The translations under genes were made by a program, and so were the position numbers. The notes beneath the pieces were generated by a model. It ran no database searches, was not told the DNA's origin, and saw nothing but the letters and a program-made list of their open reading frames with translations. Positions 3,236 through 22,177 of a DNA stretch of 30,385 bases are shown here, piece by piece (the first letter of the stretch is position 1; each line of letters begins with the position of its first letter). This DNA is from a virus, in IMG/VR virus record IMGVR_UViG_3300000176_000036, positions 1-30,385 of that record; one strand, given 5' to 3'.

Positions 3236-3604
3236 ATGCGAGCTCGCGAGTTTATTGCCGAGAATGCATCTAGTGAAACATTTTCCGTATCAGAGCGTGA
3301 TGTCATTCCAGACATGGAAAAATTTAATTCATTAGATAATTCTAATCCCTACGACATGTGGAGATTTATTGTTGCCGCCGCCGGAGAACCGTACAACGGT
3401 GATTCATTTCGCATGAAAAAATATGGCCCAACGGGACAAAAATTTGTCACAGTGGCATATACACAAGCTGATGCTGATATTATAAATGCTACTGCTAAAA
3501 CTTTGGGAGTAAAAGGCACACAAATTACCACTAAAAATTCTGATGAACCACCAGATACTAATATAACCAGTCCAATAAAAGGATTTAAAGGTTATCCAAA
3601 ATGA
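3236..3604 (+). CDS. MRAREF-family protein 1 (candidate capsid-targeted internal protein)
   Basis: This 122-residue protein is the first of three tandem paralogues. All three start with MRAREF and end with SP(I/V)xxFKGYxK. This copy begins MRAREFIAE|N and contains LDNSNPYDMWRF, an aromatic/Arg core, then AYTQADADII and the C-terminal SPIKGFKGYPK. From memory, the N-terminus resembles the T4 capsid-targeting peptide of the internal proteins (MKTYQEFIAE), which the gp21 prohead protease removes after (I/L)xE. The stop overlaps the next start (ATGA at 3601). The family looks widespread in marine T4-like phages, but I know of no assigned function. Packaging into the head is an inference from the N-terminal peptide. 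Confidence 0.7.
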   Translation: MRAREFIAENASSETFSVSERDVIPDMEKFNSLDNSNPYDMWRFIVAAAGEPYNGDSFRMKKYGPTGQKFVTVAYTQADADIINATAKTLGVKGTQITTKNSDEPPDTNITSPIKGFKGYPK

Positions 3605-3969
3605 GAGCTCGAGAATTTATAATTGAATCACTCAGAGGCAAACCTGATGCACATTTTCTTCATGCCAATCCTGGAATGATAGCTCCCAAAAATATGGAAA
3701 ATTTATATAGAAGCCGTAGCTATGATGAGTATCGCATAGGCATGCTTACTGGTATGGAGCCAGAAGACCTTGAAAAAATGGATACAGATAGTTGGGCTGG
3801 AAATAAACCTTTGTATACAGCTTATACTCCAGAAGAACACGATAAAATATTGCGAGCAATGAAAAAAATGGGTCACACAGCCGAACATCATGCTTATGTA
3901 GGCAGCAAAGAACATCCTGAAATTTATAAAACAAGCCCTGTGACATCTTTTAAAGGATACGGAAAATGA
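3601..3969 (+). CDS. MRAREF-family protein 2
   Basis: This is the second tandem paralogue, 122 residues. It shares MRAREFI(I)E at the N-terminus, a central YDEYRIGMLTGM segment aligning with YDMWRF of copy 1, then AYTPEEHDKILRAMKKMG and the terminal SPVTSFKGYGK. The middle differs strongly from copy 1, while the ends are conserved. That pattern fits a signal peptide and an anchor or fold element around a variable body. It starts in an ATGA overlap with copy 1 and ends in an ATGA overlap with copy 3, so translation is probably coupled. Function unknown; internal head protein is the best guess. Confidence 0.68.
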   Translation: MRAREFIIESLRGKPDAHFLHANPGMIAPKNMENLYRSRSYDEYRIGMLTGMEPEDLEKMDTDSWAGNKPLYTAYTPEEHDKILRAMKKMGHTAEHHAYVGSKEHPEIYKTSPVTSFKGYGK

Positions 3970-4340
3970 GAGCCCGTGAATTTTTAAATGAATTTGGTAT
4001 TCCTAAAATGCGTAATAATGTAGCAAACGCAAGTCGTAGTGTTCATTTGGCACGTGATCCTGATACAGTAGATAGAATATATCATCTAAATCGCATAGGA
4101 ATGGCTATGGGTATGGCTGATGGCAAAAGCCGTGATCCAGTAGACATGGATGAAAGTAGCTGGGCAGAAAAATACAACACTATTCATCCTTACACTCAAG
4201 AAGAAGAAAATATGTTTTATCAAGCTATGGCTACAATAGGTACTAAACATAAAATTCTAGTTAGTGATAGACGTTCTTTAGAATCAGAGGAAATACATAA
4301 AGTAAGTCCAGTAAAAGAATTTAAAGGATATGGTAAATAA
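3966..4340 (+). CDS. MRAREF-family protein 3
   Basis: This is the third tandem paralogue, 124 residues. It begins MRAREFLNE|F, has the central HLNRIGMAMGMADG motif matching YRIGMLTGME of copy 2, then PYTQEEENMFYQAMATIG and the terminal SPVKEFKGYGK. It is closer to copy 2 than to copy 1 in the middle (both keep a D-D/E-SSWA-like segment: DTDSWAGN and DESSWAEK). It begins on the stop of copy 2 (ATGA). The Ntn-hydrolase gene follows 3 nt after its stop. As with its siblings, the LNE|F junction fits the general (I/L)xE rule for T4 prohead protease cleavage, but this has not been shown. Confidence 0.68.
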   Translation: MRAREFLNEFGIPKMRNNVANASRSVHLARDPDTVDRIYHLNRIGMAMGMADGKSRDPVDMDESSWAEKYNTIHPYTQEEENMFYQAMATIGTKHKILVSDRRSLESEEIHKVSPVKEFKGYGK

Positions 4341-15458: not shown

Positions 15459-15722
15459 ATGAACAAGCGGATTCGACAACTTGCCCTTGATGCTGGTATA
15501 GGATTTACCTTATGGGACGATAGTGGCAGAGAAATGATTGACAACTATACTCCTGAAGAAGACTTGGAAAAGTTTGCCGAGCTAATTGTTAAAGAATGTG
15601 CTGAACTAGCATATAGCTATAACATTTATGGTAAAGGGCGAGCCTGGAATTTAATTATTAAGGAACATTTTGATTTACCCATTACAGATACAGATTTACC
15701 ACCATATTTAAGAAATTTGTAG
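15459..15722 (+). CDS. Small FAELIVKEC-type protein, copy 2
   Basis: This 87-residue protein starts MNKRIRQLALDAGIGF and carries FAELIVKECAE and IIKEHFDL, the family core also seen at 14530. AAGGAT lies 9 nt upstream. It is the last gene before a double hairpin. Function unknown. Confidence 0.7.
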   Translation: MNKRIRQLALDAGIGFTLWDDSGREMIDNYTPEEDLEKFAELIVKECAELAYSYNIYGKGRAWNLIIKEHFDLPITDTDLPPYLRNL

Positions 15723-15758
15723 TATTCAACTGATGTTGGATATACACAAAGTAGCTCC

Positions 15759-15778
15759 TGAACTGTATAAACAGTTCA
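15759..15778 (+). terminator. First of two tandem hairpins
   Basis: An 8-bp stem TGAACTGT/ACAGTTCA with an ATAA loop lies just before the stronger terminator at 15785. It has no T-run and may be an RNA-processing or pausing element. Confidence 0.45.
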
Positions 15779-15784
15779 TTTTAT

Positions 15785-15816
15785 ACAGATACCTATAAAA
15801 CGGTATCTGTTTTTTT
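15785..15816 (+). terminator. Intrinsic terminator before uvsW
   Basis: A 9-bp stem ACAGATACC/GGTATCTGT with an 8-nt loop is followed by seven T residues. The T-run merges into the -35 box of the next promoter. Confidence 0.85.
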
Positions 15817-15844
15817 GACTTATCTTAATTAAATATGCTACAAT
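15815..15844 (+). promoter_or_regulatory. Sigma70-like promoter for uvsW N-half
   Basis: TTGACT (15815-15820), an 18-nt spacer, then TACAAT (15839-15844). The predicted start (15851±1) coincides with the ATG at 15852, implying a leaderless mRNA. Confidence 0.65.
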
Positions 15845-15851
15845 AGCAATA

Positions 15852-16883
15852 ATGCGAACAGCTACAATTATAATACGCGACGAGGTTAATATCAAAATTG
15901 AAGGTCTTGAGCTTGACGCACGACGAAAATTAGTTAATACCTTTAAATATGATGTACCCGGGGCTCGTTATTTACCGGCGGTTAGACTTGGTCGATGGGA
16001 TGGTAAGGTATCTTATTTTCAACTGGGCGGAAGTACCTTTACAAATTTACTGCCAGAAATTATTCCTATATTAGAAAGTTTTAACTATGATATCATACTT
16101 GATGATCAGCGTGATTATTCTACTAATTTTGTTTTTGAGCGAGTAAACGAAGATACATTTATTCATATTAATTGGGGGGCCGGCCACCCGATGGAAGGCC
16201 AGCCAATTAAATTGCGAGATTATCAAGTTGAAATCATTAATAATTTTTTAGAAAATCCTCAATCAATTCAGGAAATTGCCACCGGAGCAGGCAAAACTAT
16301 TATGACTGCGGCACTAAGTCAACGATGTGAACAACATGGTAGGACTATTGTAATTGTTCCCAACAAGTCATTAGTAACACAAACAGAAAAAGATTATCGC
16401 GGATTGGGGTTAGATGTCGGCGTTTTCTTTGGTGATCGTAAAGAATTTGGAAAAACGCACACAATTTGTACTTGGCAAAGTTTAAATATTTTGCTTAAAA
16501 ATACAAAAAATTCTACAGCAGAAATTACAATTCAAGATTTTCTTGAAGATGTAGTATGCGTAATGGTTGACGAGTGTTTTACTGCTGATAGTAAAGTTTT
16601 AACACCTTCGGGATATGTAGCAATCAAAGATATTAAAGCGGGCGATACAGTTATTAATTATTCAGAAGATACAAAAGAATTTAAGACCGACATCGTAGTT
16701 AAACAGCATATAAATTTAACCAATTCCTCTAGTGAAAAAATGTACAATTTGGAGTTCGATAATGGAAGTAAAATACAAGTTACTGGAAACCATAAATTTT
16801 TAACTAACGATGGATGGATACGGGCAGATAGATTGACAAAAAATCACGAAATAGTTTATACTAGTATAAATACAGTTAACTAA
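15852..16883 (+). CDS. uvsW: UvsW helicase N-terminal half fused to N-intein
   Basis: This product has 343 residues: 241 of UvsW followed by a 102-residue N-intein. The UvsW part has the N-terminal domain (RLGRWDGKVSYF, 46-57), helicase motif I TGAGKT (144-149), motif Ia IVIVPNKSLV and the start of motif II, VMVDE (237-241). The reading frame then enters the intein at Cys242 and stops after it. UvsW is a superfamily-2 helicase that remodels R-loops and branched DNA in T4. This half alone lacks the rest of motif II and motor domain 2, so it should be inactive until joined to the C-half. The product is inferred from intein motifs and the exact match of the broken DECH box. Confidence 0.92.
   Translation: MRTATIIIRDEVNIKIEGLELDARRKLVNTFKYDVPGARYLPAVRLGRWDGKVSYFQLGGSTFTNLLPEIIPILESFNYDIILDDQRDYSTNFVFERVNEDTFIHINWGAGHPMEGQPIKLRDYQVEIINNFLENPQSIQEIATGAGKTIMTAALSQRCEQHGRTIVIVPNKSLVTQTEKDYRGLGLDVGVFFGDRKEFGKTHTICTWQSLNILLKNTKNSTAEITIQDFLEDVVCVMVDECFTADSKVLTPSGYVAIKDIKAGDTVINYSEDTKEFKTDIVVKQHINLTNSSSEKMYNLEFDNGSKIQVTGNHKFLTNDGWIRADRLTKNHEIVYTSINTVN
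16575..16880 (+). other. N-terminal split intein (Int-N)
   Basis: The 102 residues run from Cys1 to Asn102. Block A is CFTADSKVLTPSGYVAIKDI (1-20), with KAGDTVINY after it. Block B contains VTGNHKFLT (69-77) with the typical Thr70-x-x-His73. No LAGLIDADG or other endonuclease domain is inside it. Its length matches known naturally split N-inteins (about 88-105 residues). Confidence 0.92.
16865..16872 (+). promoter_or_regulatory. Perfect T4-type late promoter inside Int-N
   Basis: TATAAATA lies in the last codons of the N-intein. The expected start near 16878 gives a ~19-nt leader for the endonuclease ATG at 16897, and the same transcript would run into the C-half of uvsW. Confidence 0.6.
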
Positions 16884-16896
16884 AGCGAAAGTATTT

Positions 16897-17799
16897 ATGA
16901 AACAGTCAGCCCAACAAATGATAGATCGATTTAACGCTAAGATGATAGATCATAATCAACTTACCAGAGTTATTGCGTATTCGGGTAACAGTATAACGTT
17001 ATCGACGGGAGTAACTTTGATTGATAATGATAAAGATAGGTTTTGCAGAAGATTATTAAGCACTAAAACTATATTATGGGTTAGTAACATTGATAACTTA
17101 CTAAACGGGTCAATCACTACTAACGAGATTAAGGCTAAGTTATCCTCTATTGGTGGCAACGCAGTTCAGGAAAAATATGGAGATATAATTAAACAAAACC
17201 TTAATACTGGTACTCCGTGGAATGCTGGCACCAAAGGACAAAATATAGGCACACTCAGTCCTAGACCGCAATCAGTCAAAGATAAAATTAGTAAAAAAAA
17301 TTCTGGTTCTAGCAACGGTATGTACGGTATTAAAATGTCAGTTGCTGATAAACAAGTAAGATCTGATATTATGAAAAAGAAAATATTAAACGGGGAATTT
17401 ACCCCGAATAGTAATAATAGAAATACCCACTGGAATTCGACATTCGACGATAAGCCTTACCGATCAAGTTGGGAAGCGTTATACCAATTTATTAATCAAT
17501 CTGCCGAATATGAAACATTGCGAATCGAATATAATTTACAAGGTATCACAAAAGTCTATATAGTTGACTTTGTGGATCATCAAAACAAAATAGTAGCCGA
17601 AGTTAAACCGCGTGAATTATGTGTGGGCGAAAAATTTAACTCAAAAATTATGGCATTGCACGAGTGGGCAAAAATAGCAGGATATACTGTGACTATAGCT
17701 GATCAAGATTGGCTACGATTGCAAAATATAGATATTGATTACTCACGTTTTGATGACAATACAGCAAGAAAAATTAAAGCATTATATGAAACTAATTAA
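16897..17799 (+). CDS. Homing endonuclease between the intein halves (PD-(D/E)XK/Vsr-like fold with NUMOD3-like motifs)
   Basis: This free-standing 300-residue gene sits between Int-N and Int-C. NUMOD3-like DNA-binding motifs appear at TPWNAGTKGQ (106-115) and KDKISKKNSGSSNGMYGIK (128-146). The C-terminal domain looks like a PD-(D/E)XK nuclease: YRSSWE (188-193), IVDF with Asp224, and AEVKP with Glu235 and Lys237, then a helix with Lys250 and Trp257. Such enzymes cut intein-free alleles and spread the locus by repair. Fractured genes with split inteins flanking Vsr-like homing endonucleases are known from phage-rich metagenomes; whether this protein belongs to that exact family is uncertain. 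The start has only a weak ribosome site (GCGAAAG). It overlaps Int-C by 14 nt. Confidence 0.8.
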   Translation: MKQSAQQMIDRFNAKMIDHNQLTRVIAYSGNSITLSTGVTLIDNDKDRFCRRLLSTKTILWVSNIDNLLNGSITTNEIKAKLSSIGGNAVQEKYGDIIKQNLNTGTPWNAGTKGQNIGTLSPRPQSVKDKISKKNSGSSNGMYGIKMSVADKQVRSDIMKKKILNGEFTPNSNNRNTHWNSTFDDKPYRSSWEALYQFINQSAEYETLRIEYNLQGITKVYIVDFVDHQNKIVAEVKPRELCVGEKFNSKIMALHEWAKIAGYTVTIADQDWLRLQNIDIDYSRFDDNTARKIKALYETN

Positions 17800-17890
17800 A
17801 AAAACTGAAATAACTAAACCGGCAGAAGTATATAATTTACATATAGAAAACAATCACAACTATGTAGTAGACGGGGCAGTAGTATCAAAT
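17786..17890 (+). other. C-terminal split intein (Int-C)
   Basis: 35 residues. Block F is VYNLHIENNHNYVVDG; block G is AVVSN, followed by extein Cys+1. The terminal Asn and Cys+1 needed for splicing are present. The usual penultimate His is replaced by Ser. Confidence 0.92.
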
Positions 17891-18628
17891 TGTCATATGG
17901 CAAAAGCCGATGCCCTAAAAAATTTAATGACAACAGTAATGAGTCGTGTTCCAATTCGATGGGGGCTAACAGGGACAATACCTAAAGAAGCATTTGAATT
18001 CCAAGCACTTAAAATAAGTTTAGGGCCAGTTATTAACCAACTTGCTGCTAGTGAGCTACAAGAACGGGGAGTATTAGCGCAATGCCATGTTAATATTGTT
18101 CAGTTAATAGACCACGCAGAATTTACAAATTATCAATCAGAATTAAAATTTTTATTAGAAGACTCAGATAGACTTGAGACTATATCCAAACTAGTGGCAC
18201 AAGTTAATGCCACTGGCAATACTCTTGTACTAGTAGACCGTGTAGCTGCCGGACATGCTCTAGTGTCATTGTTAGGAGACCATGCTGTATTTGTAAGCGG
18301 GGCAACAAAAGGAACAAAACGAGATGAAGAATATGATGAAATTGCGACAAGTACTGGAAAAATTATTGTGGCTACCTATGGTGTTGCTGCTGTTGGTATT
18401 AATTTACCCCGTATCTTTAATCTTGTTCTTATTGAACCTGGTAAATCTTTTGTGCGAGTTATACAGTCGATTGGTCGCGGTATACGCAAAGCAGAAGACA
18501 AAGACCATGTAGAAATCTGGGACGTAACCTCTACTTGTAAGTTTGCACGACGACATTTAACCAAACGCAAACAGTTTTACAAGGAAGCTAACTATCCATT
18601 TACTCAAGAAAAATTGGAGTGGAAATAA
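17786..18628 (+). CDS. uvsW: C-intein fused to UvsW helicase C-terminal half
   Basis: This product has 280 residues: a 35-residue Int-C and 245 residues of UvsW. The ATG at 17786 is chosen over in-frame ATGs at 17735 and 17753 because it gives a standard Int-C length, and it overlaps the endonuclease stop. The extein resumes with Cys-His-Met-Ala-Lys, completing the DECH box, followed by WGLTGTIP (motif III), LVLVDRVAAGHAL (IV), VATYGVAAVGINLP (V) and QSIGRGIRK (VI). Joined to the N-half it makes a 486-residue UvsW, near the T4 length of about 503. There is no strong Shine-Dalgarno, so translation may be coupled to the endonuclease gene. Confidence 0.9.
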   Translation: MKLIKKTEITKPAEVYNLHIENNHNYVVDGAVVSNCHMAKADALKNLMTTVMSRVPIRWGLTGTIPKEAFEFQALKISLGPVINQLAASELQERGVLAQCHVNIVQLIDHAEFTNYQSELKFLLEDSDRLETISKLVAQVNATGNTLVLVDRVAAGHALVSLLGDHAVFVSGATKGTKRDEEYDEIATSTGKIIVATYGVAAVGINLPRIFNLVLIEPGKSFVRVIQSIGRGIRKAEDKDHVEIWDVTSTCKFARRHLTKRKQFYKEANYPFTQEKLEWK

Positions 18629-18631
18629 AGG

Positions 18632-18660
18632 TTGCGTTGCATAAAATAATTTGTTATAAT
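18632..18660 (+). promoter_or_regulatory. Sigma70-like promoter, leaderless geometry
   Basis: TTGCGT (18632-18637), a 17-nt spacer, then perfect TATAAT (18655-18660). Six nt separate the -10 box from the ATG at 18667, so transcription should begin at the start codon. Confidence 0.65.
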
Positions 18661-18666
18661 AAGACT

Positions 18667-19167
18667 ATGAAAATATTAACCTTGGAAAACGAAGCATATG
18701 ATTTAGATCATCTACCTGACGAAATAGATGATATGAGATTTGCTATTCTGGATAATTCTAATCCGCAAGATCCTGATTATCATTATATTCCATTAATATT
18801 TTTGGAAAGTTTTAATGCTCCGGCATTGGTATTGCGTATAGGAGAGCACCGTGTACGCATGCCTGTAGATTGGCAATTATTAATAGGCGAACCAGACTTT
18901 GGAGATTTAGAAGTTATTCCGCTATCAGCATTAAATGATCGAGGATTTAAAGCATTTCAATTTAATCCATTAACTAGTTTTAGACCAAGTTTTTTAGATG
19001 TAGAAATTTTAGACGTGTATCAGGATGTGTCATGGTATGCTCCTAAACTTAAAAATGGACAAATGTTATGTGTGCCAATCAATGAGGACAAAGAACCTTT
19101 ATGTGTTTATTTTGTCAAAGATATTAGTCGTAACTGCGAGGTGGTTGACTACAATCGGGCGTTTTAA
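18667..19167 (+). CDS. Conserved hypothetical protein downstream of uvsW
   Basis: This 166-residue protein begins MKILTLENEAYDLDHLPDEI. An upstream in-frame start at 18619 would put the promoter's -10 box inside the gene, so 18667 is preferred. The body is beta-rich and well ordered (GEHRVRMPVDWQLLIGEPDF, FQFNPLTSFRPSF, VYFVKDISRNCEVVDYNRAF). It reads like a family conserved in marine T4-like phages, with no function known to me. It is first in a five-gene chain with overlapping starts and stops that ends in a DnaE-like protein, so a link to replication is possible. Confidence 0.75.
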   Translation: MKILTLENEAYDLDHLPDEIDDMRFAILDNSNPQDPDYHYIPLIFLESFNAPALVLRIGEHRVRMPVDWQLLIGEPDFGDLEVIPLSALNDRGFKAFQFNPLTSFRPSFLDVEILDVYQDVSWYAPKLKNGQMLCVPINEDKEPLCVYFVKDISRNCEVVDYNRAF

Positions 19168-20275: not shown

Positions 20276-20649
20276 TGAAAATTATTTGTATATTATTAGC
20301 GTTATTTGGTATCAAACATTTTATATGCGATTTTCTTTTACAAAATGAAAAGATGCTTAAGGATAAGGGAGTATATATGGCCCCGGGTGGTTGCAATCAT
20401 GCGGCTATACACGCACTCGGAACCTTAATTGTATTATTATTATTTTTCCCGTGGGACCCAGTTGCTCATATTTTTGCCATTGCAATTGGTTTACTAGATG
20501 GCGTAATACATTATCATATTGATTGGGCAAAAACAAATTTAAGTCAAGGGTTGACTCCTGCTGATCGTAAATTTTGGGTATGGTTCGGGGCCGACCAAGG
20601 TCTACACTATTTGACATATGTTGGAATAATTGCTATACTTGTTCTATGA
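20275..20649 (+). CDS. DUF3307-like small membrane protein
   Basis: This 124-residue protein has hydrophobic segments at ~3-22, ~48-66 and ~107-124. Conserved-looking polar pairs are HFICDFLLQNEKMLKDKG near the start, NHAAIHALG, HYHIDWAKT and ADQGLHYLT. This His/Asp arrangement matches the DUF3307 family found in bacteria and phages. ATG 20275 (TGATG overlap) is preferred over GTG 20272. Function unknown; it should sit in the inner membrane. Confidence 0.78.
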   Translation: MKIICILLALFGIKHFICDFLLQNEKMLKDKGVYMAPGGCNHAAIHALGTLIVLLLFFPWDPVAHIFAIAIGLLDGVIHYHIDWAKTNLSQGLTPADRKFWVWFGADQGLHYLTYVGIIAILVL

Positions 20650-21224
20650 GCGCAGATATTGATATTGACTTGGCAGACCGAGAACAAGTACTAAAACTTA
20701 TTCAAGCTATACCAGCACGGCAACTACATCAAGGTCAAGTCAGACGTCACGCATCGGGAGTTTATATTACTGATATTCCTTATGACCCAATAAATCAATG
20801 CGCGGCTATAGATTATGAAGAAGCAGAAAAACGCGGATATTTTAAAATTGATTTACTTAACATGTCGGTATACCAGTTAATTAAATCTCCTGAACATTAT
20901 CAAGAATTATTAGCAAAAGAACCGCCGTGGGAAAGATTGTGGAATGATTTGGAATGGGCAAAACAACTAGTACATATAGGCAACTATACTGATTTATTAT
21001 TGAAAATGAAACCAGATTCTATTCCGCGAATGGCAGCTTTTATAGCAATTATTAGACCAGGAAAAGCTCATTTACAAAATAAATCTTGGCCAAAAATCTT
21101 TGAAACTGTATGGGATGGGGATGATTCTAAAGGTTTTGTGTTTAAAAAAAGTCATTCAATTTCTTATGCAGCATTAGTAACCTTACACATGAACCTACTT
21201 GACGAAGTTACTCCATCTTCCTAA
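20646..21224 (+). CDS. Miniature DnaE-like (family C polymerase-related) protein
   Basis: This 192-residue protein starts at an ATGA overlap at 20646. It keeps, in DnaE order, the palm motif DIDID (4-8), RRHASGV (33-39, like the PHAxGV segment), DYEEAEKRGYFKIDLLN (56-72, with Lys67 and Asp69 like the KFDFLGL motif), LKMKPDSI ... IAIIRPGK (119-140, like the LKP/YRPG fingers segment) and FVFKKSHSISYA (164-175, like the FNKSHA segment). Bacterial DnaE has over 1,100 residues; PHP, thumb, beta-binding and OB parts are absent. All three catalytic Asp equivalents appear present. Whether it polymerises DNA is unknown. Similar short proteins seem to occur in other T4-like phages as hypotheticals. Confidence 0.7.
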   Translation: MSADIDIDLADREQVLKLIQAIPARQLHQGQVRRHASGVYITDIPYDPINQCAAIDYEEAEKRGYFKIDLLNMSVYQLIKSPEHYQELLAKEPPWERLWNDLEWAKQLVHIGNYTDLLLKMKPDSIPRMAAFIAIIRPGKAHLQNKSWPKIFETVWDGDDSKGFVFKKSHSISYAALVTLHMNLLDEVTPSS

Positions 21225-21655: not shown

Positions 21656-22177
21656 ATGAGTTTTAACCGACAACAACCGCCCTTAAATTTTTATGTTTAC
21701 TTGTATTTGCGAGAAGATGGAACACCTTACTATTGCGGTAAAGGATTAGGATCACGAGCATGGGCAACACACAGAACGCCCATCCCGCACAATGATCGCA
21801 TAAAAATAGTTGCACATAATTTAGCAGAAGTTGAGGCACTTTTGTTAGAAAAAAAACTTATCACGTATTATGGCCGCAAAGATTTAGGTACTGGATTATT
21901 ACATAATATGACAGAAGGGGGCGAGGGATCGTCGGGTAGAATAACTGAAGAAATAACAAAAAATAAAATATCTAAAGTAAAAACTGGAAAACCCAATAAA
22001 GGGGCAGGCTGGAATAGAGGTGTTAAATATACTGAAGAATTCAAACAACGATTAGATATGTCTGGTTTAGAAAAAGGACATGGCTGGAATAAAGGGCTTA
22101 AATTGTCAGAAACTCACAAAGAAAATCTTAAAAAAGCATGGGAAAAGCGAAAATTAGCTCAGCAAATTAATGTATAA
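21656..22177 (+). CDS. GIY-YIG homing endonuclease with NUMOD3 motifs
   Basis: The 173 residues contain the GIY-YIG core: YVYLYL (13-18), YYCGKG (25-30), Arg34, catalytic Glu65 in LLLEKKLI, and Asn84 in LLHNMTEGGEGSSG. It is followed by NUMOD3-type DNA-binding repeats (KNKISKVKTGKPNKGAGWNRG, split around 103-122, and GHGWNKGLKLSETHKENL, 141-158). It is a free-standing mobile gene, like the T4 seg genes, making double-strand or nicked breaks in related phages lacking it. It sits between a minus-strand gene and a tail gene and has a late-type promoter. No intron or intein signature flanks it. Confidence 0.92.
   Translation: MSFNRQQPPLNFYVYLYLREDGTPYYCGKGLGSRAWATHRTPIPHNDRIKIVAHNLAEVEALLLEKKLITYYGRKDLGTGLLHNMTEGGEGSSGRITEEITKNKISKVKTGKPNKGAGWNRGVKYTEEFKQRLDMSGLEKGHGWNKGLKLSETHKENLKKAWEKRKLAQQINV

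What the first reader, a model, noticed from the sequence alone, without database searches (positions are those of the whole stretch)
15852..18628. Fractured uvsW: a split intein placed exactly inside the helicase DECH box
The sequence shows VMVDE, then intein Cys1 with blocks A and B, then a stop. After a separate gene come intein blocks F and G, ending VVSN, then CHMAKAD. Removing the intein restores VDECHMAKAD, the motif II of UvsW (T4 has NDECHLATG). Split inteins with a free-standing endonuclease between the halves ('fractured genes') are known for phage gp41 and for NrdA, NrdJ and IMPDH genes; I am not sure a UvsW site has been described. Neither half can hydrolyse ATP alone, so trans-splicing would be essential for UvsW.
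Basis: partly seen in the sequence, partly recalled or inferred. Interest (0 to 1): 0.87.

Follow-up and report, generated by a model that had tools for sequence, protein, structure and literature searches.

The report
Mobile split intein fractures UvsW helicase
In a T4-like phage the repair helicase gene uvsW is cut in two, exactly in its ATP-hydrolysing motif, by a split intein with an endonuclease gene in between; the unit has recently jumped between phages, the same split gene sits in culturable Salmonella and Proteus phages, and in some relatives a deletion of the endonuclease gene has joined the halves again.

Summary
UvsW residues 1-241 end ..VMVDE, then come a 102-aa IntN and a stop, a separate 300-aa PD-(D/E)XK endonuclease gene (HEN), and a 35-aa IntC before CHMAKAD.. 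(245 aa). It is no assembly error: an identical copy lies on a 103-kb contig, over 100 further loci share the architecture, and so do isolated phages S16 (Salmonella) and PM2 (Proteus). It is a 'fractured gene' (a known kind) and a live mobile element. The window and L086 share about 98% identical intein and HEN inside uvsW genes only 79% identical; identity breaks at the 5' junction and about 60 nt past the 3' junction. In the window's clade, 57/57 intein-free alleles read DE-V-H and 65/65 occupied ones DE|C-H, so the unit carries its +1 Cys codon. Several alleles have lost the HEN; one deletion re-fused the halves in frame, leaving the HEN tail as a scar. Some relatives carry a second split intein at Walker A (GK|T). 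The same HEN family sits at Walker B (DE|C) in terminase, clamp loader, PhoH and another helicase. Splicing and cleavage are inferred. The founding paper (Dassa 2009) was unavailable, so priority of the uvsW site is unsettled.

The parts
15815..15844 (+). sigma-70-like promoter (TTGACT-18-TACAAT, TG before the second hexamer) just after a terminator-like hairpin (15785-15810); possible promoter of the uvsW N half
   Evidence: the scan found no clear excess over shuffles, so this is only suggestive
15852..16574 (+). UvsW N-extein, residues 1-241, ending ..VMVDE (Walker A intact, Walker B broken after DE)
   Evidence: dN/dS 0.05 against L086
16575..16883 (+). IntN: 102 aa, Cys1, block B TGNH, stop TAA 16881-16883
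   Evidence: Intein_splicing 5.6e-9; Cys1 in 56/56 distinct alleles, TxxH in 55/56
16865..16872 (+). T4-late-promoter-like TATAAATA upstream of the endonuclease ATG
   Evidence: TATAAATA at 16865; ATAAATA in 44/46 distinct IntN-HEN junctions, about 0.5 expected from background; junctions are homologous, so not independent
16897..17799 (+). Free-standing endonuclease gene, 300 aa: NUMOD3-type middle, C-terminal PD-(D/E)XK core with invariant E193, D224, E235, K237
   Evidence: dN/dS 0.10-0.25; 50/51 distinct copies without an internal stop
17786..17890 (+). IntC: 35 aa, ATG overlaps the endonuclease 3' end by 14 nt, ends ..VVSN
   Evidence: terminal Asn in 56/56
17891..17893 (+). +1 Cys codon (TGT): splicing nucleophile, and third residue of motif II DECH in the spliced product
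   Evidence: C in 65/65 occupied, V in 57/57 empty alleles of this sample
17891..18628 (+). UvsW C-extein, 245 aa, CHMAKAD.. (Helicase_C)
   Evidence: dN/dS 0.08 against L086
16572..17951 (+). Block shared with L086 at 90-100% per 30 nt inside uvsW genes 79% identical: footprint of a recent transfer, including about 60 nt of 3' extein
   Evidence: the same pattern in other pairs

Best explanation
A mobile 'fractured gene' unit. The two uvsW halves are made as separate proteins tipped with IntN and IntC; the tips associate, fold into one HINT domain and trans-splice (Cys1 / terminal Asn / Cys+1), excising themselves and restoring motif II VDECH in a 486-aa UvsW. The gene between them encodes a TnsA-like PD-(D/E)XK endonuclease that cuts intein-free uvsW at or near the Walker B codons; repair from the carrier copies IntN, HEN, IntC and a short 3' flank with the +1 Cys codon into the recipient. 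Shown by sequence: anatomy, exact site, presence/absence alleles, repeated block transfer, selection on exteins and HEN, HEN-loss derivatives. Inferred: splicing, DNA cleavage, the cut site, late expression of the HEN from the ATAAATA element.
For: Anatomy and profiles; HINT fold of the contiguous allele. Same architecture at the same codon in over 100 IMG/VR loci and in phages S16 and PM2. Occupied and empty alleles interleave on the extein tree: at least 10 changes, at least 7 forced by well-supported branches. Block transfer: window/L086, L090/L093, L165/L169, L128/L134, L008/L009 and L192/L196 have intein and HEN 92-100% identical in exteins 60-78% identical; identity drops within 20-60 nt of the junctions. 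Perfect +1 Cys association in this sample. Clean pair S16 / STML-198. HEN: catalytic residues invariant in 26 sequences, dN/dS 0.10-0.25, best structural matches TnsA, then Vsr and I-Bth0305I.
Against: No biochemistry. HEN fold matches are weak (best Z 7.7; Foldseek E 0.04). The penultimate intein residue is Ser/Ala/Thr rather than the usual His. Block transfer shows homing-like movement but does not prove that this HEN makes the cut. Intein-free DECH alleles also exist in more distant relatives, so Cys is not always brought by the unit.
Confidence: 0.9

Rival explanations
1. The halves work as a non-covalent two-subunit helicase without splicing, as for the NrdA gene in pieces created by a homing endonuclease insertion (Friedrich et al. 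2007, own knowledge; cited in PMC3322345).
For: Phage genes split by endonuclease genes can stay active without splicing.
Against: Here both breakpoints carry intein halves with Cys1, TxxH and terminal Asn conserved in nearly all alleles; the break lies between the DE and CH of motif II; L003-type alleles are a single ORF with the same intein in frame.
Confidence: 0.04
2. Dead or decaying locus: an intein/HEN wreck in a uvsW pseudogene, or an assembly artefact.
For: One HEN allele has an internal stop (L007/L151, one contig).
Against: Exteins and intein halves are open throughout, dN/dS 0.05-0.08 in the exteins; independent contigs and GenBank phages.
Confidence: 0.02
3. RNA-level joining (group I or II intron) or programmed frameshift instead of protein splicing.
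For: T4-like phages do have group I introns with HENs.
Against: No Rfam match up to E 1 in 15700-18700 and none at gathering score in five relatives; ends are canonical intein motifs; contiguous alleles translate straight through the intein.
Confidence: 0.01
4. Block transfer is ordinary homologous recombination rather than HEN-driven homing.
For: T4-like phages recombine freely; cleavage by this HEN is untested.
Against: Several independent transfers end within about 20-60 nt of the insertion point on both sides, and the HEN is kept under purifying selection.
Confidence: 0.08

Closest known systems
Fractured genes (Dassa et al. 2009, NAR 37:2560; not held, known to me from its abstract and from citations)
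   Same: Conserved enzyme gene broken by a split intein with a free-standing endonuclease gene between the halves; phage-borne; control element travelling with the endonuclease gene.
   Different: UvsW DE|CH site (I cannot say whether it is among that paper's eight gene types); TnsA-like ExK endonuclease rather than the Vsr-like family reported for half of those loci; here also block transfer, HEN-loss and re-fused alleles, and isolated phages.
gp41-1, NrdJ-1 and IMPDH-1 split inteins
   Same: Canonical split position (about 100 + 35 aa), class 1 motifs, HINT fold.
   Different: Different host gene and +1 residue context; penultimate Ser/Ala/Thr; splicing untested.
AceL-TerL, GOS-TerL and VidaL atypical split inteins (PMC13014065)
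   Same: The Walker A intein of relatives (L087, L053) and the TerL inteins of T4-like phages (L198, L199, L201) have short IntN and long IntC with a HEN between.
   Different: Not the window's intein, which is canonically split.
Pseudomonas phage MIJ3 split DNA polymerase B with an HNH endonuclease (PMC6892783)
   Same: Same three-ORF layout in a cultured phage.
   Different: Different host gene, endonuclease family and intein.
Mycobacteriophage TerL1 inteins at Walker A (GK|T) and Walker B (PMC5050341)
   Same: Inteins at the same ATPase motifs.
   Different: That paper mentions no split inteins; different host gene.
T4 SegE, free-standing GIY-YIG endonuclease acting on uvsW (PMC2988022)
   Same: uvsW is a homing target.
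   Different: Outside the gene, no intein, other nuclease family.

Membership tests
Split (class 1) intein | Block A Cys1, block B TxxH, terminal Asn, Cys/Ser/Thr +1 | tested here: met
   56/56 distinct alleles with Cys1 and terminal Asn, 55/56 with TxxH; +1 Cys in 65/65
Split (class 1) intein | HINT fold | tested here: met
   on the natural contiguous homologue L003
Split (class 1) intein | Trans-splicing activity | not testable with these tools
   needs co-expression
Fractured gene (Dassa 2009 kind) | Conserved enzyme broken in two by a split intein with a free-standing endonuclease gene between | tested here: met
Vsr-like (EDxHD) homing endonuclease | EDxHD active-site motif | tested here: inconclusive
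   A3 conserves E193, D224, E235-x-K237, an ExK pattern; structure matches TnsA Z 7.7, Vsr 5.1, I-Bth0305I 4.9. The motif is recalled from memory.
PD-(D/E)XK nuclease | D..(D/E)xK residues on the alpha-beta core | tested here: met
   invariant D224, E235, K237; TnsA_N in 19/26 members, best 2.3e-7; fold matches consistent but weak
Homing endonuclease | Cuts the intein-free site and drives its own inheritance | not testable with these tools
   block transfer between divergent phages is indirect support
UvsW helicase | UvsW N domain and SF2 motifs, DECH after splicing | tested here: met
   S16 and T4 uvsW occupy the same genome slot

The most novel reading that the evidence does not exclude
The split state is a reversible phase in the life of a Walker-B-specialised mobile element: one endonuclease family places split inteins at the DE|C codons of five kinds of ATPase (UvsW, terminase gp17, clamp loader gp44, PhoH, a megaphage SF2 helicase), brings its own +1 Cys where the recipient lacks it, and after the endonuclease is lost the intein either stays split or is fused back to a contiguous mini-intein.
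Probability: 0.5. Interest if true: 0.8.

Novelty: new variant of a known kind. Interest (0 to 1): 0.68.

Why it matters
It supplies what fractured genes lacked in the literature I could read: repeated recent block transfers, exact empty/occupied pairs in cultured phages (S16 / STML-198), and a deletion series from split-with-endonuclease to split-without to re-fused. Whether split inteins are a dead end, and how a mobile intein meets its +1 requirement, become directly testable. Alleles with inteins at both ATPase motifs would need two splicing reactions to make one helicase, and the set is a source of new split inteins for protein engineering.

Tried and rejected
RNA intron: no Rfam match. 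Bacterial homologues of the HEN: none by the pattern scan of 84,980 bacterial and archaeal genomes. PDB sequence search with the HEN profile: none. First guess that the +1 Cys always comes with the intein: corrected, because intein-free DECH alleles exist at 54-72% identity to the window's exteins and lie beside occupied ones; whether these are footprints of precise loss or pre-adapted sites is open. Two HEN dN/dS pairs (L007/L009, L090/L007) gave no usable value. Foldseek against PDB for the HEN gave nothing with E under 0.001. Dassa 2009, Carvajal-Vallejos 2012 and Aranko 2014 are not held. Prevalence was not estimated: searches were seeded with the intein-bearing alleles.

Full report
Observation. 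uvsW codons 1-241 end VMVDE; IntN (102 aa) follows in frame and stops at 16883; a 300-aa ORF runs 16897-17799; the 35-aa IntC starts at ATG 17786, overlaps that ORF by 14 nt, and is followed in frame by CHMAKAD.. to 18628. Removing the intein halves gives a 486-aa UvsW with motif II VDECH. The window is a 30.4-kb virus record with T4-like genes around.

Reality. A 100% identical locus lies on an independent 103-kb contig, and over 100 loci share the layout at the same codon. The isolated phages Salmonella S16 and Proteus PM2 have it too (MNDE|C..HN|CHLATG), annotated only as helicase / hypothetical / helicase. Intein-free STML-198 and Melville have uvsW as one 1.5-kb ORF with DECH at the site; S16 and STML-198 flanks are about 88-100% identical per 50 nt around a clean 1,227-bp insert. 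Contigs of 103 to 360 kb hold only the split uvsW.

Splicing domain. Motifs are canonical except for a penultimate Ser/Ala/Thr. L003 and L111-L115 carry the same intein as one ORF; its AlphaFold2 model (pLDDT 88) matches known inteins. Splicing was not tested.

Endonuclease. Profile A3 (26 sequences) has invariant E193, D224, E235 and K237. TnsA_N is the commonest Pfam hit (19/26), NUMOD3 next (15/26). The structure search gives TnsA first (Z 7.7), then Vsr and I-Bth0305I (about 5) among the nucleases, weak values that the tool itself warns about. Selection is purifying (dN/dS 0.10-0.25). A late-promoter-like ATAAATA precedes the gene in 44 of 46 distinct junctions; this is suggestive only.

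Mobility. On an extein tree without the +1 residue, occupied and empty alleles interleave: at least 10 changes, 7 forced by supported branches. The window's closest extein by identity is the empty L016 (89%). Window and L086 share intein and HEN at 98% or more (dS 0.04-0.05 in IntN and HEN) in exteins at 79% (dS 1.2-1.6, saturated); the shared block begins at the 5' junction and ends about 60 nt past the 3' junction. Other pairs repeat this: L090/L093 100% against 75%, L165/L169 100 against 77, L128/L134 98 against 67, L008/L009 97 against 77, L192/L196 95 against 60 (HEN against extein), with identity falling within 20-60 nt of the junctions. This is the footprint expected of homing; that this HEN makes the cut is inferred.

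The +1 residue. In this sample all 57 distinct empty alleles have Val at +1 and all 65 occupied ones Cys. A targeted scan found at least 11 distinct intein-free DECH alleles at 54-72% identity, some nested beside occupied ones. So Cys+1 appears to be carried in with the unit inside the Val clade, but may pre-exist or be left behind elsewhere.

Endonuclease loss. L053 keeps a stop after IntN and the last codons of the HEN before IntC. In L005, IntN runs into the HEN's final YETN and its stop. In L064, the IntN stop overlaps the IntC ATG and no HEN remains. In L003 and L111-L115 the HEN is deleted so that IntN reads in frame through the HEN tail (still visible in the other frame as SRFDNNTARKIKTLYETN) into IntC: a re-fused, contiguous intein. 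The scar gives the direction of that event. L117 and L118 are contiguous without a visible scar, and their history is unknown.

Wider pattern. Seven distinct alleles (L053, L087, L099, L101, L135, L153, L189) carry a second insertion at Walker A. In L087 it is a split intein at GAGK|T with a short IntN, another endonuclease ORF, and an IntC fused to the UvsW middle segment and the second IntN, so uvsW is in three pieces. The window's HEN family also sits in split inteins at Walker B DE|C of terminase gp17 (phiS, Thanatos-2, SG1, phiR1-RT; PspYZU05 and SEA1 have the same gene order), clamp loader (L105, L204), PhoH (CPt10) and a Lak megaphage SF2 helicase.

Novelty. The fractured-gene arrangement is known. 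Seven held papers contain both 'uvsW' and 'intein'; in the five... of them whose passages I read or whose listing I saw, none describes a UvsW intein, but not all seven were opened and the founding paper is not held. The new parts, as far as I could check, are the block transfers with the +1 codon, the HEN-loss and re-fusion series, the double-intein alleles and the Walker B pattern.

Noticed in passing
L087:444-2987 (also L053, L135, L153, L189, L099, L101): Second split intein in uvsW at Walker A GAGK|T with a different endonuclease ORF (..IIEFNGEYWHADP..); with the DE|C intein this makes a three-piece UvsW.
   Followed up: partly
L122, L198-L201, L205 (TerL); L105, L204 (clamp loader); L203 (PhoH); L202 (Lak helicase): Same endonuclease family beside split inteins at Walker B DE|C of other ATPases in T4-like, Campylobacter and Lak phages, mostly annotated as endonuclease or hypothetical.
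   Followed up: partly
window 21656-22177: Second endonuclease-like ORF with NUMOD-like repeats, weak match to a homing endonuclease PHROG.
   Followed up: no
window 20574-21224: Short ORF matching a DNA polymerase PHROG (phrog_11778, 1.7e-56), just upstream of that endonuclease ORF; possibly a piece of a broken polymerase gene.
   Followed up: no
window 3236-4340: Three tandem paralogous ORFs of about 122 aa, all starting MRAREF.
   Followed up: no
L119: Fractured IMPDH gene with a different endonuclease ORF, the kind already known.
   Followed up: no
L120:2676-3311: S16 has an annotated homing endonuclease directly upstream of uvsW, in the slot of T4 segE, so uvsW there is flanked and split by different endonuclease genes.
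   Followed up: no
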